46,065 nt of DNA from Bacteroidota bacterium. Lineage in GTDB: Bacteria > Bacteroidota > Ignavibacteria > UBA10030 > UBA8401. Location of the stretch: positions 1 through 46,065 of the forward strand of contig JAJYOK010000024.1 in the NCBI GenBank assembly GCA_021796215.1, read 5' to 3'. Under the pieces are notes generated by a model that saw only the letters and a program-made list of their open reading frames with translations, was not told the DNA's origin and did not search any database. The position numbers were made by a program, and so were the translations under genes. Of this stretch, positions 3,166 to 45,703 are shown one piece after another (positions within the stretch are counted from its first letter, which is position 1; each line of letters opens with the position of its first letter).

Positions 3166-3816
3166 TTACGGTACAACTGCCAGCACTGTTTCCCCCGCGA
3201 CCGTTTTCTCATTCATTGATACTTTAATATCGGAATTTTTGGGAACAAAAACATCAACCCGGGAGCCGAATTTAATCATTCCGAAACGATTCCCCGCGGT
3301 GACGGCATCGCCGACTTTTGCCGTGCATACAATGCGGCGCGCGATAAAACCGGCAATTTGTTTGAAAAAAATCCTGAATTTCCCCGCATCAATACCGATG
3401 TGCGTTTGTTCGTTGTTCAACGACGCTTTTTCTTCAAACGCCGCAAAATATTCCCCCTTCACATAACGGTAATAGTCAACCCTGCCGGTAACAGGAATAC
3501 GATTGACATGCACATTCAGCGGCGACATGAAAATGCTGATTTGTACAGCATCGCGCTTGAGATATTCATTTTCCACCACATCTTTGATGGCGACTATCGT
3601 GCCGTCTGCCGGGGAAAGGACAAGGTTATTCCCTTGCGGAATTTTGCGGTCCGGGTCACGGAAGAAATTCAGTGCGAAAAGAAAAAAACAAAACGCAACG
3701 GCAATGATGAGGTACTTGAGGAAAGTTTGCTCAATAAGAAAGTATGATCCGAGCATCGCTGCAAAACATATCGCAACGATTGTGAAAAACACATCGTAAC
3801 CATATTTCGTAATCAA
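3166..3816 (-). CDS. psd: Phosphatidylserine decarboxylase proenzyme (short archaeal/rhizobial type)
   Basis: Makes phosphatidylethanolamine from phosphatidylserine at the inner membrane. The 216-residue length matches the short PSD class. Two N-terminal hydrophobic spans (residues about 8-48) anchor it. The conserved VLSPADGTIVAI and MSPLNVHVNRIP blocks are present, and the FGS self-cleavage motif (MIKFGSRVDVFVP) lies near the C-terminus, where the pyruvoyl group should form. The start is a TTG with a GGAG eight bases upstream; no in-frame ATG lies near. It is the first gene of the minus-strand run and has a good promoter upstream (3868-3896). Confidence 0.94.
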   Translation of the reverse strand: MITKYGYDVFFTIVAICFAAMLGSYFLIEQTFLKYLIIAVAFCFFLFALNFFRDPDRKIPQGNNLVLSPADGTIVAIKDVVENEYLKRDAVQISIFMSPLNVHVNRIPVTGRVDYYRYVKGEYFAAFEEKASLNNEQTHIGIDAGKFRIFFKQIAGFIARRIVCTAKVGDAVTAGNRFGMIKFGSRVDVFVPKNSDIKVSMNEKTVAGETVLAVVP

Positions 3817-3963: not shown

Positions 3964-3992
3964 TTGCTTTTTTGCTGAAAAATTTCTATACT
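3964..3992 (+). promoter_or_regulatory. Sigma-70-like promoter for the Nif3 leader / small RNA
   Basis: Plus-strand -35 TTGCTT (3964-3969) and -10 TATACT (3987-3992) with a 17-bp spacer. Transcription would start near 4000, about 120 nt before a strong intrinsic terminator. It is back-to-back with the psd promoter, so the two units are divergently transcribed. Confidence 0.6.
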
Positions 3993-3999
3993 AAATGCA

Positions 4000-4150
4000 C
4001 AAAAGTGAAGAAAGTTATTGGTGAAATGAAATTCCCGCTCCGACAGTTGTACACGAAAGCACCGAACAAGTTCCAGAGTTTGTTGAAGCACATAGCACAA
4101 ATCTTAGAATCGGCGAAAAAGTCCCGTAAAACCTACGGGACTTTTTTTTG
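4000..4150 (+). ncRNA. Leader transcript or small RNA ending in an intrinsic terminator before the Nif3-like gene
   Basis: Between a good promoter and the Nif3-like gene lies a unit of about 150 nt that ends in a textbook terminator. A 41-codon ORF (ATG 4026, stop 4149-4151; product begins MKFPLRQLYTKAPNK, basic) spans most of it. The ORF runs through the terminator, and its stop overlaps an ATG of the next gene (TGATG). This fits either a cis-acting attenuator with a translated leader or a free-standing small RNA. I recognise no known RNA family: no 6S, SRP or tmRNA hallmarks. Segment 4029-4037 could pair imperfectly with the terminator's 3' arm, giving a weak candidate antiterminator. Confidence 0.45.
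4116..4149 (+). terminator. Strong rho-independent terminator abutting the Nif3-like start
   Basis: Stem GTCCCGTA (4121-4128) pairs with TACGGGAC (4134-4141) around a 5-nt loop. The stem is extended by A-U pairs and followed by eight T residues (4142-4149). No recognised plus-strand gene lies upstream, so it must end the short leader unit or attenuate the downstream gene. Confidence 0.85.
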
Positions 4151-5269
4151 ATGCTCCTGACGATGAAACTGTCTGATATTCAACACATGCTGGAACAATG
4201 GGCGCCGCCCGCAACGGCATGGAAAGGTGATAACGTCGGACTGCAAGTTGGTTCACATAACGCGGGGATCGTGAACATCCTTCTTGCGCTCGATGTTACA
4301 ATGGAAGTGGCGAAGGAAGCGGCACAGCGAAGAGCGAATCTTATTATTACGCATCACCCTCTCCTCTTTCATCCGCTTCGTTCTTTGACATCAAATTCGC
4401 GCACAGGCGAAATCGCGCTCTATTTGGCTGAACAAAAAATCAATCTGTTCGCCGCGCACACAAATTTAGACAGCGCTCCCGGCGGCGTAAATTTTGTTCT
4501 GGCAGAGCTTTTAGGATTGAAGAACGTGTCCGTTCTCTCGCCGCTCACTGACAGCATGATGAAAATTGTCGTGTTCGTTCCCAAAGAACATCTTGATCGT
4601 GTTGCGGCAGCAATGCACAGCGCCGGTGCCGGAGCATTCACAAAATATGAGGAATGCAGTTTCCGCACTGAAGGCGTCGGCACATTTCGCGGAACGCACG
4701 AAGCGAATCCGTTCATCGGCACAAAAGGAATTCTTGAAATTGTGCCGGAAATAAAATTAGAAATGATCGTTCCTTCCTGGAAACTTTCCGGCGTGGTGAG
4801 CGCAATGCTTAACGCGCATCCATACGAAGAAGCGGCATACGATATTATTCCGCTGAAGAACCACGCACAGAATATCGGGCTCGGCGCGATTGGCGATTTA
4901 CCCAATATAATGACACGCGATACATTTCTTTCAATGACGAAGAGAAAAGTAAATACAGAAGTGCTGCGATATTCCGGCAGAATCAACCGTATTCAGCGTG
5001 TCGCAGTGTGCGGCGGTGCCGGCAGCGAATTGATAGCTGATGCAATTCAAAAAGGTGCCGATGCCTTCGTAACCGCAGATGTGAAATACCACACATTTCA
5101 GGATGCCGAGCGCGGCATTCTTTTGGTTGATGCAGGGCATTTTGAAACTGAACATCATGTGATTCCTGCAATTGAACATCGTGTGAAAAAGTTTTTAAAG
5201 GAGTCAAAAAGCTCCTCAAAAGTTTTCGTGACAAAACACAAGACAAACCCTGTTTCCTATTATTATTGA
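4151..5269 (+). CDS. Nif3-like dinuclear metal centre hexameric protein (YqfO type)
   Basis: Member of the Nif3/YbgI/YqfO family, a widespread toroidal hexamer with a two-metal site. Its biochemical role is unsettled, with GTP cyclohydrolase I type 2 as a common label. Metal ligands are visible as ITHHPLLFHPL near residue 60 and VDAGHFETEH near the C-terminus. The length of about 370 residues, with a middle insertion (about residues 135-230), is the YqfO-type layout. ATG 4151 or the in-frame ATG 4163 (MKLSDIQHML) could be the start. Neither has a clear ribosome binding site, because the terminator T-run ends at 4149. It is followed after 19 bp by the zinc-ribbon gene, as in many bacteria. Confidence 0.9.
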   Translation: MLLTMKLSDIQHMLEQWAPPATAWKGDNVGLQVGSHNAGIVNILLALDVTMEVAKEAAQRRANLIITHHPLLFHPLRSLTSNSRTGEIALYLAEQKINLFAAHTNLDSAPGGVNFVLAELLGLKNVSVLSPLTDSMMKIVVFVPKEHLDRVAAAMHSAGAGAFTKYEECSFRTEGVGTFRGTHEANPFIGTKGILEIVPEIKLEMIVPSWKLSGVVSAMLNAHPYEEAAYDIIPLKNHAQNIGLGAIGDLPNIMTRDTFLSMTKRKVNTEVLRYSGRINRIQRVAVCGGAGSELIADAIQKGADAFVTADVKYHTFQDAERGILLVDAGHFETEHHVIPAIEHRVKKFLKESKSSSKVFVTKHKTNPVSYYY

Positions 5270-5288: not shown

Positions 5289-6020
5289 TTGGAAGAAATA
5301 CTGAGACTTTTGTATTCCCTGCAAACTGTAGATACAAAACTGGATGAGCTGGAAGAGTTAAAAGGTGACTTGCCGGAAATTGTTAAAGCACTGGAAAACG
5401 ATGTGAGCCAGGTGAAAGACACAATCAAAGAAAAAGAAGATATTATCACGACATCGGTAAAGACACGAAACAAAGCCGATCTTGACATTCACGATTTCAA
5501 AGAGAAACTCGAAAAATATAAATCGCAGCAGTATTCCGTTCGCAACAACAAAGAATACGATGCGCTGACCAAAGAAATTGATTTTGCAGAACAGTCCATT
5601 AAAGATCTGGAAGCACAATTCAGCGATCTGGAAAAAACAATGGACGTCGCTAAAAACGAGATCACTGAGCTTTCACAAAAATTAGAGGAAGCCGAAAAAA
5701 ATCTCGAAGAAAAACGTAAAGAGCTTGCCGAAGTCTCCAAGGCAACAGAAGACGAAGAACTTAAACTGACGCATGAACGCGAAAAGATTAAAGTCCGTTT
5801 ACAAAAAGATATTTTGCCGCGGTATGAACGCATCCGCAGAGCGCGCGACGGAAGAGCAGTTGTTCCTGTGAGGCGAAATTCCTGCGGCGGCTGCCATAAC
5901 CGAATTCCTCCGCAGCGTATTCTTGAACTTCGCACCAATACAAAAATGTACATGTGTGAACACTGCGGACGTATTCTCGTGTCATCGGAAATTGCTGAAT
6001 CTGTCACGACAGCTTCGTAA
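5289..6020 (+). CDS. Coiled-coil protein with C-terminal C4 zinc ribbon (zf-RING_7 / CdsZ-like)
   Basis: Cytoplasmic protein of 243 residues. Residues about 1-190 are a long charged coiled coil of hairpin type, with heptads rich in Lys and Glu. The C-terminus carries a zinc ribbon with two CxxC pairs (CGGCHNRIPP and MCEHCGRIL). This is the PF02591-type family seen next to Nif3 genes; a nucleic-acid or chaperone-like adaptor role has been suggested for relatives. The start is TTG (5289), with an AAGGAG six bases upstream that decides the start. It is likely co-transcribed with the Nif3-like gene. Confidence 0.88.
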   Translation: MEEILRLLYSLQTVDTKLDELEELKGDLPEIVKALENDVSQVKDTIKEKEDIITTSVKTRNKADLDIHDFKEKLEKYKSQQYSVRNNKEYDALTKEIDFAEQSIKDLEAQFSDLEKTMDVAKNEITELSQKLEEAEKNLEEKRKELAEVSKATEDEELKLTHEREKIKVRLQKDILPRYERIRRARDGRAVVPVRRNSCGGCHNRIPPQRILELRTNTKMYMCEHCGRILVSSEIAESVTTAS

Positions 6021-6092: not shown

Positions 6093-6568
6093 TGAAGGCA
6101 CGTCAGGCAATCGCTTTAGTTCACAAGAATTAAGGAGGAAAGTCCGAACTCCGTCCTGCCATTGGCGGGATGGGCACGGTGCTGGATAACATCCAGGGTC
6201 CCTTTTATCGGGATACGGAAAGTGTCACAGAAAAAATACCGTCACGCTTCGGCGTGATAAGGGTGAAAAGGTGCGGGATGCAAGCAAGCGTCCTTAATGT
6301 AAGAGCGCACCGCGCCATCAGTGATGATGGCGGCACGACAAACCCCACCGGGAGCAAGGCCGCGTAGGTTTTGCGTCCTGTTCCGTCGGTAATACGGCGT
6401 GACAGGAAAAGAGATGCCCACTCAATTGAATCCCGCTAATGCGGGATTCACGCAAAACGGGTAGGCTGCTAAAGTGGCGCAGTAATGCGTCATCGAGATA
6501 AATGATTGCCTCTCTCTGCTTCTGCGGAGAAAGACAGAATTCGGCTTATCACCGTGCCTATATTTTTT
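6093..6568 (+). ncRNA. rnpB: RNase P RNA component (class A)
   Basis: Catalytic RNA of RNase P, which matures tRNA 5' ends. Conserved core blocks are visible: GAGGAAAGTCCGAACTCC near 6135 (P4 5' side), the GGTGAAAAGGTGCG block near 6263, and ATAAATGATTGCC followed by ACAGAATTCGGCTTAT at 6500-6549 (P4 3' side and tail). The terminal P1 helix is AGGCACG (6096-6102) with CGTGCCT (6553-6559), followed by a T-run to 6568. A TTCG-capped P12-type hairpin lies at about 6242-6257, and GAATCCCGC/GCGGGATTC forms a hairpin at about 6428-6449. At about 470 nt it is longer than the E. coli molecule (377 nt). Exact ends are inferred. Confidence 0.93.
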
Positions 6569-45448: not shown

Positions 45449-45473
45449 AGATTATTTTTATTTTACGGCAGGT

Positions 45474-45645
45474 CTCCTGGCTTCGTGCATTCAGCAGCGC
45501 CTTCCCATCCGACCAAAAAAAATCAGGACAGTGGCATTTCGCTGCTGCTTTCGCACATCACAGTTGCGCGGCAGCTCCGGAATCACACCGGACTTCCCTA
45601 TTCTTTCCCAATGCGCTAATAGACAACATCGGGAACACCGTAAAA
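45474..45645 (-). promoter_or_regulatory. Cobalamin (AdoCbl) riboswitch
   Basis: Minus-strand RNA with the conserved core in order: GGGAA, GTCCGGTGTGATTCCGG, AGCTGCCGCGCAACTGTGAT, GCCACTG, GGGAAGGCGCTGCTGAATGC and the B12 box AGCCAGGAGACCTGCC (45477-45492). It precedes the BtuB-like receptor gene, so B12 should repress uptake. The expression platform is not obvious: about 220 nt with several hairpins separate the aptamer from the start codon, and no terminator is seen, which favours translational control. End points are approximate. Confidence 0.96.
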
Positions 45646-45703
45646 GTTGTAAAAGAACTTTTGCGCCAGAGCGCATCAGCCTTTGGCTGATTAAATTATT
45701 CCG

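What the first reader, a model, noticed from the sequence alone, without database searches (positions are those of the whole stretch)
3964..4163. Promoter, translated 41-codon leader and terminator in front of a Nif3-family gene
The sequence shows a 17-bp-spaced promoter, then about 120 nt, then a strong intrinsic terminator whose T-run ends one base before an ATG of the Nif3-like gene. A basic 41-codon ORF runs through the terminator, and its stop overlaps that ATG. A ribosome translating the leader would prevent the terminator from folding, so the gene may be controlled by transcription-translation coupling (translation-dependent antitermination). Alternatively the unit is an unrelated small RNA and the Nif3 gene has no other visible start signal. 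I know of no described leader of this kind for Nif3 genes.
Basis: partly seen in the sequence, partly recalled or inferred. Interest (0 to 1): 0.62.

Follow-up and report, generated by a model that had tools for sequence, protein, structure and literature searches.

The report
Leader-peptide transcription switch before nif3
In front of the nif3 gene of a whole group of bacteria lies a short 'gate': a tiny peptide gene followed at once by a transcription stop signal, arranged so that a ribosome making the tiny peptide would cover the stop signal and let nif3 be copied, which could help to find out what this widespread but poorly understood gene is for.

Summary
At 3964-4163 lie a promoter (TTGCTT-17-TATACT), a 41-codon ORF (4026-4151) and a strong intrinsic terminator (hairpin 4115-4147, T-run to 4149), 13 nt before the conserved nif3 ATG (4163). 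In 143 nif3 loci of 95 genera, 127 have a strict terminator within 60 nt upstream of nif3 (shuffles 2 of 715; other windows of the same loci 0 of 417). Its sequence differs completely between lineages (GTCCCG/CGGGAC, TGCACTTC/GAAGTGCA, GTGTTCC/GGAACAC, GTGTCCG/CGGACAC), but the layout persists. The leader ORF shows coding constraint, and the stop of the first ORF clusters at -12 to +5 nt from the hairpin (43 of 83 genera; 6 expected), or the ORF runs through it, as here. No antiterminator pairing is conserved. Best reading: a pyrBI/pyrE-like attenuator in which a ribosome at the leader's end occludes the terminator and lets RNA polymerase enter nif3-cdsZ. Signal and sign of regulation are inferred. 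My paper searches found no such element described for nif3.

The parts
3964..3992 (+). Promoter: TTGCTT (3964-3969), 17-nt spacer, TATACT (3987-3992); expected start of transcription about 3999-4000
   Evidence: kept in congeners G001 (TTGCAT..TATACT) and G002 (TTGCGT..TATACT); promoter score in 87 genus representatives
4026..4151 (+). Leader ORF, 41 codons, MKFPLRQLYTKAPNKFQSLLKHIAQILESAKKSRKTYGTFF; it runs through the terminator and its TGA lies at the end of the T-run
   Evidence: coding constraint in relatives; no family in Pfam or NCBIfam
4115..4149 (+). Intrinsic terminator: hairpin 4115-4147 (GTCCCGTA-AAACC-TACGGGAC core) and T-run 4142-4149
   Evidence: pair changes in 78 terminators of the order
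4163..5269 (+). Regulated gene nif3 (DUF34_NIF3; Nif3-like dinuclear metal centre protein), conserved ATG at 4163
   Evidence: PF01784, E 2.7e-77; TIGR00486, E 3.3e-57
5289..6020 (+). Second gene of the likely operon: CdsZ/CT398-like C4 zinc-ribbon protein (below the NCBIfam equivalog cut-off)
   Evidence: PF02591, PF24481; NF047363, 104.7 bits against a cut-off of 275; synteny
6095..6564 (+). RNase P RNA (rnpB), class A, 74 nt downstream of the zinc-ribbon gene; possibly reached by the same transcript

Best explanation
It is a translation-coupled transcription attenuator of the nif3 operon. RNA polymerase starts about 25 nt before a short ORF and reaches a strong intrinsic terminator about 120 nt later. 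If no ribosome follows closely, the hairpin folds and transcription ends just before nif3. If a ribosome translates the leader quickly, it arrives at (most lineages) or within (window genus) the terminator's 5' arm, so the hairpin cannot fold and polymerase reads on into nif3 and cdsZ. Shown by sequence: the layout, its conservation, the coding constraint, the stop-to-hairpin positioning, and the absence of a conserved competing antiterminator. Inferred: occlusion by the ribosome, the direction (more translation, more nif3), and that a physiological signal modulates it.
For: (1) Strict terminator <=60 nt before nif3 in 127 of 143 loci (87 of 95 genera), shuffles 2 of 715, control windows 0 of 417; 15 of 15 named Ignavibacteria-type loci against 2 of 65 other named loci (the grouping, by rank in the hit list and by name, was made after I had seen the loci); of 84 ORFs >=150 codons tested in 16 named loci and the window, the 10 with such a terminator are all nif3. 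(2) Terminator sequences are unrelated between lineages while position and layout stay. (3) ATG ORF >=15 codons reaching the hairpin in 74 of 87 genera; shuffles 23.4 +- 3.8, maximum 35; shifted control 26 of 86. (4) For the first ATG after the -10, taken regardless of its stop, the stop ends -12 to +5 nt from the stem in 43 of 83 genera (6.1 expected) and more than 22 nt upstream in 14 of 83 (62.6 expected). (5) pN/pS 0.52 in frame, 0.90 and 0.94 in the other frames, 26 pairs. (6) No conserved pairing of the leader with either terminator arm. (7) Stem-to-nif3 distance 5-40 nt, median 18, leaving no room for another promoter; the window's upstream gene (3166-3816) is divergent, so the terminator is not its own. 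(8) Experiments in E. coli: a terminator a few bp after a stop codon is almost fully repressed by the ribosome, with relief beyond about 27-30 nt (PMC4824070, passages); coupling across the pyrBI leader prevents its terminator (PMC5021804, passages).
Against: No transcript, termination or translation data were available. [quoted passage not shown] these ORFs start 52-146 nt before the stem and I could not show a pause site (T-runs >=5 in only 12 of 87 leaders). In 14 of 83 genera the first ATG's ORF stops early; 4 of 127 loci gave no leader ORF (G011, G043, G044, G107); the three f15 genomes lack the terminator. The 26 pairs of the coding test were hand-picked, some share a member, and their frames came from the same ORF assignment. 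Peptide sequence is not conserved between genera, so no arrest motif or sensor codon could be named.
Confidence: 0.66

Rival explanations
1. Classical attenuator (trp/his/thr type or drug-sensing type): the ribosome stalls at sensor codons or an arrest motif inside the leader, and this switches between an antiterminator and the terminator.
For: Short translated leader peptides, mostly 17-45 residues; mild lysine enrichment (15.6% against 13.4% in shuffles, z 4.7).
Against: No conserved antiterminator pairing; no run of one codon shared by genera (by eye); the stop lies <=22 nt from the stem in all genera where it precedes it (the ORF choice itself demanded <=25 nt), whereas amino-acid attenuators keep >20 bp (PMC4824070).
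Confidence: 0.14
2. The short ORF is an independent small-protein gene with its own promoter and terminator, and nif3 lives on read-through or on an unseen promoter.
For: Own promoter and terminator in most genera; purifying selection on the peptide. A stop close to a terminator is also what an ordinary small gene would have.
Against: Peptides are not alike between genera and hit no family or credible solved structure; in 15 of 85 genera, the window's included, the ORF's stop ends >=32 nt past the start of the stem, at or beyond the release site, so the terminated RNA would lack a stop codon (distances); the terminator-to-nif3 spacing is short and kept.
Confidence: 0.1
3. Constitutive device: the terminator merely sets a low fixed level of nif3 read-through, the ORF keeps that level steady, and there is no regulated signal.
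For: No conserved sensor sequence was found.
Against: Strong positional constraint on stop codons and replacement of the terminator sequence with the same layout suggest selection on the interplay of ribosome and terminator; but they do not exclude a constant level.
Confidence: 0.1

Closest known systems
pyrBI (pyrL) attenuator of E. coli
   Same: A short leader ORF runs through an intrinsic terminator ahead of the operon; a closely following ribosome prevents the hairpin (PMC5021804 and PMC4824070, passages). The window genus has this layout.
   Different: The gene is nif3, not a pyrimidine gene; no U-rich tract (T-run >=5 in 12 of 87 leaders); most relatives stop just before the hairpin; different phylum.
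rph-pyrE attenuator of E. coli (recalled, no paper read)
   Same: The upstream ORF ends a few nt before the terminator so that a terminating ribosome blocks the hairpin; this is the layout of 65 of 85 genera.
   Different: There the upstream ORF is a full gene; here it is a 14-60 codon leader soon after the promoter.
trp/his/thr-type amino-acid attenuators
   Same: Translated leader peptide plus intrinsic terminator.
   Different: No sensor-codon run, no conserved antiterminator, stop within 22 nt of the stem or past it.
Attenuators catalogued by premature-terminator analysis (PMC2965389, passages)
   Same: Orthologous genes keep an attenuator while the sensing system changes between lineages.
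   Different: Neither NIF3 nor a word beginning with Ignavi occurs in that paper's main text.

Membership tests
pyrBI/pyrE-type coupling attenuator | leader ORF that ends at, or runs through, an intrinsic terminator preceding the regulated gene | tested here: met
   65 of 85 genera end from 22 nt before to 4 nt into the stem, 20 go further; unbiased first-ATG test
pyrBI/pyrE-type coupling attenuator | U-rich pause tract in the leader (feature recalled) | tested here: not met
   T-run >=5 in only 12 of 87 leaders; T fraction 0.21-0.32 over the last 80 nt
pyrBI/pyrE-type coupling attenuator | regulated pyrimidine gene | tested here: not met
   gene is DUF34_NIF3
pyrBI/pyrE-type coupling attenuator | read-through depends on leader translation | not testable with these tools
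   needs reporters or in vitro transcription-translation
amino-acid (trp/his/thr) attenuator | run of codons for the pathway's amino acid | tested here: not met
   no shared run in 123 leader peptides, by eye
amino-acid (trp/his/thr) attenuator | antiterminator competing with the terminator | tested here: not met
   mean z 0.26 and 0.06 for pairing with the 5' and 3' arms, 87 genera
riboswitch, T-box or other Rfam leader | match to a described RNA family at its gathering score | tested here: not met
   best is Thr_leader, 23.4 bits against a cut-off of 55, mainly on the hairpin; none at gathering score in the leader
DUF34/NIF3 protein family | PF01784 / TIGR00486 above the curated cut-off | tested here: met
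   260.3 bits (cut-off 23.4); 194 bits (cut-off 130.55)

The most novel reading that the evidence does not exclude
A translation sensor kept across a large bacterial group: the attenuator heads a nif3-cdsZ-rnpB unit, so that ribosome activity on a near-leaderless leader peptide sets the supply of Nif3 and, by read-through, of RNase P RNA, tying tRNA maturation to translation capacity. Its terminator has been replaced by unrelated hairpins several times while the layout was kept.
Probability: 0.13. Interest if true: 0.8.

Novelty: new variant of a known kind. Interest (0 to 1): 0.6.

Why it matters
Nif3/DUF34 proteins are very widespread, yet their function is unsettled (a metal ion chaperone or insertase has been proposed: PMC8469502, title, abstract listing and passages). 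A conserved attenuator would say when a large group of bacteria wants the protein made and would tie it to translation, a direct handle on the function. It is also a natural series of about 85 genera in which the spacing of ribosome stop and terminator has been tuned by evolution, against which coupling models can be tested outside E. coli.

Tried and rejected
Rfam search of the stretch and of the window: nothing for the leader. Structured RNA: whole-transcript fold z -1.5, leader plus 5' arm mean z 0.13. U-tract pausing: not seen. A known small protein: no Pfam or NCBIfam hit; best PDB hit of the window peptide is a designed protein, E 0.0012, taken as helix similarity. Terminator belonging to the upstream gene: excluded in the window because that gene is divergent. 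The same GTCCCG terminator elsewhere in the genome: three other places, two beside CRISPR-like repeats and cas-like or other genes, one behind a ribosomal-protein-like ORF, none examined as leaders. Literature: no paper with Nif3 + leader peptide + attenuation; Ignavibacteria + leader peptide gave three papers that look unrelated (listing); searches listed nothing on nif3 control (listings only).

Rows dropped: of 91 order genomes with nif3 85 were used; G008, G030, G031, G036, G089 (gene start missing) and G051 (only 82 nt upstream) were left out. Outside the order, 58 loci were chosen by hand, mostly one per genus, from the strong matches listed. Of 25 genomes with short or weak Nif3, upstream DNA of 21 was read by eye: such a hairpin was seen in G117 and G169 only. 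One locus per genus with a terminator (87) was used.

The 16 of 143 without a strict terminator include near misses by eye (long loop in G028, G100, G110, G119, G145; hairpins with mismatches or more G-T pairs in G149, G302; distance 64 nt or more in G055 and about 150 nt in G045; weak T-run in G046, G059, G097; N-gap in G066) and absences (G115, G150, G168).

Full report
Observation. The window carries, on the + strand, TTGCTT (3964) - 17 nt - TATACT (3987-3992), an ORF of 41 codons (ATG 4026, TGA 4149-4151), a hairpin 4115-4147 followed by a T-run to 4149, and nif3. nif3 matches DUF34_NIF3 and TIGR00486; alignment with 15 relatives puts its start at 4163, so the ATG at 4151 that overlaps the leader's stop is an upstream in-frame start which congener G002 lacks. 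Within the 46 kb window seven terminator-like hairpins pass a strict test, and only this one is followed within 60 nt by the start of a long ORF.

Conservation in the window's order. nif3 was found in 20 of 22 family genomes and 91 of 98 order genomes. Reading upstream DNA of 85 of these showed the same layout almost everywhere: a TTGC..TATATT-like promoter, a short leader, a GTCCCG...CGGGAC-like hairpin with a T-run, and nif3. In 78 hairpins of the order the TCCC core is nearly fixed, but outer and inner pairs change with pairing mostly kept (GC 31 and AT 26 of 78 at position -3; TA 44 and AT 17 at position -2, where 16 are unpaired; CG 73 and TA 5 at position 3).

Conservation beyond. A scan of named genomes and a class-level search (279 of 294 genomes with a match) extend the picture. 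In Ignavibacterium, Melioribacteraceae, Ignavibacteriaceae and further unnamed families the layout is the same, but the hairpin is a different one: ATGCACTTC..GAAGTGCAT in most, AGTGTTCC..GGAACACT in one family, AGTGTCCG..CGGACACT in another. The same detector finds it in 15 of 15 named loci of this group and in 2 of 65 other named loci (grouping made after I had seen the loci). Three genomes of family f15 lack it, and of 21 loci with short Nif3 proteins only two show it by eye.

Counts and controls. Over all 143 loci the strict detector finds a terminator within 60 nt of nif3 in 127; dinucleotide shuffles give 2 of 715, and windows further upstream in the same loci 0 of 417. By genus, 87 of 95 have at least one. 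Among 84 ORFs of at least 150 codons in 16 named loci and the window, 10 have such a terminator and all 10 are nif3. The hairpin ends 5-40 nt (median 18) before the aligned nif3 start in the 87 genus representatives. The promoter score reaches 7.5 in 80% of these against 14% in mononucleotide shuffles.

The leader is probably translated. With ATG starts only, 74 of 87 genera have an ORF of >=15 codons that reaches to within 20 nt of the hairpin; shuffling the leader gives 23.4 +- 3.8 (maximum 35 in 200 rounds), and a position 180 nt upstream 26 of 86. Taking simply the first ATG after the -10, without regard to its stop, the stop codon ends between -12 and +5 nt of the stem in 43 of 83 genera (6.1 expected from shuffles), and more than 22 nt before it in 14 of 83 (62.6 expected). 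In 26 hand-picked pairs of relatives pN/pS is 0.52 in frame and 0.90 and 0.94 in the other two frames; substitutions at codon positions 1, 2, 3 are 92, 95, 140. The pairs are not independent and their frames came from the ORF assignment, so this supports but does not prove coding. Examples: MRKFLIKLARRKTTELTK, MSNRIRPKQLDLKFPRITSEKSEK..., MVKRRPYTDKNHISLVLKSVRT. Peptides are not alike between genera; lysine is enriched (z 4.7), and net charge is only modestly above what the A-rich DNA gives (0.192 against 0.152, sd 0.010). In many genera of the other lineages the ATG follows the -10 by 12-15 nt, so the message is nearly leaderless and a ribosome could start early.

Mechanism. The decisive anatomical fact is the position of the leader's stop. 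In 65 of 85 genera with an assigned ORF it ends from 22 nt before to 4 nt into the stem (53 of them within 12 nt), and in 20, the window genus among them, the ORF goes further (that assignment demanded a stop no more than 25 nt before the stem, so the unbiased number is the first-ATG test above). In E. coli a terminator a few bp behind a stop codon is almost fully repressed, with relief beyond about 27-30 nt, and the repression vanishes when translation is removed; amino-acid attenuators keep their terminators >20 bp away from the leader, which the authors explain by this effect (PMC4824070, passages read). The pyrBI leader, where the ORF passes through the terminator, depends on close coupling (PMC5021804, passages read). 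The nif3 leaders sit on the repressed side of that boundary. No alternative pairing competes with the terminator: pairing of the leader with the 5' or 3' arm is at chance over 87 genera (mean z 0.26 and 0.06), and the window's best leader:3'-arm duplex is -8.8 kcal/mol against -15.3 for the hairpin core, z -0.6. So the simplest device fits: ribosome present, hairpin blocked, nif3 on; ribosome absent or late, hairpin forms, nif3 off. The same paper warns that ribosomes rarely catch up within the first 100 bp without pausing. This would make the default state 'off' and the switch sensitive to initiation and elongation rates; but I could not show a pause.

What it is not. Not a described RNA family, not a trp-type attenuator by codons, antiterminator or spacing, not of pyrBI type by a U-tract, not a known small protein. 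A stand-alone small gene is less likely, since in 15 of 85 genera, the window's included, the stop lies at or beyond the expected release site (distances), and since the hairpin keeps its short distance to nif3.

Context. Behind nif3 lies a CdsZ/CT398-like zinc-ribbon gene, and then RNase P RNA (window 6095-6564). rnpB is found downstream on the same strand in 25 of 40 loci scanned, several of which are too short to reach it; the gap from the zinc-ribbon gene is 16-605 nt in the 24 loci measured, and only 16-24 nt in L021, L125 and L128. In other lineages a TATATT-like box in the gap suggests an own rnpB promoter (by eye). Control of rnpB by this attenuator is therefore open.

Print. Searches found no description of a leader or attenuator for nif3. 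The DUF34 review holds neither 'leader' nor 'riboswitch' in its main text, and the premature-terminator survey does not mention NIF3. Subscription journals are mostly not held, so absence in print is limited to these searches.

Verdict. A real, widely conserved ribosome-coupled attenuator, undescribed within these searches; mechanism well supported by anatomy and comparison, unproven by experiment.

Noticed in passing
window 6095-6564 (+); L021, L026-L032, L034, L040, L041, L125-L128 and others: RNase P RNA lies behind nif3 and a CdsZ-like zinc-ribbon gene in 25 of 40 scanned loci of this bacterial group; in three loci the gap to the zinc-ribbon gene is only 16-24 nt, so co-transcription is likely there.
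   Followed up: partly
window 45450-45657 (-): Cobalamin riboswitch, 106.5 bits.
   Followed up: no
L279, L282 (G000:C11 about 66-74 kb): CRISPR-like repeat arrays with ORFs that look like cas1 and cas2 (by eye) in the window's genome; hairpins of the GTCCCG type lie beside them.
   Followed up: no
L016, L022 (same family, genus g2): The leader peptide of G003 has a net charge of -1, unlike most others, and its ORF passes the hairpin, while in G004 of the same genus it stops before it.
   Followed up: no
L222, L223, L224 (family f15): The three f15 genomes examined have no terminator before nif3; the DNA upstream looks like the 3' end of another gene (by eye), so the element was lost or never gained there.
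   Followed up: no
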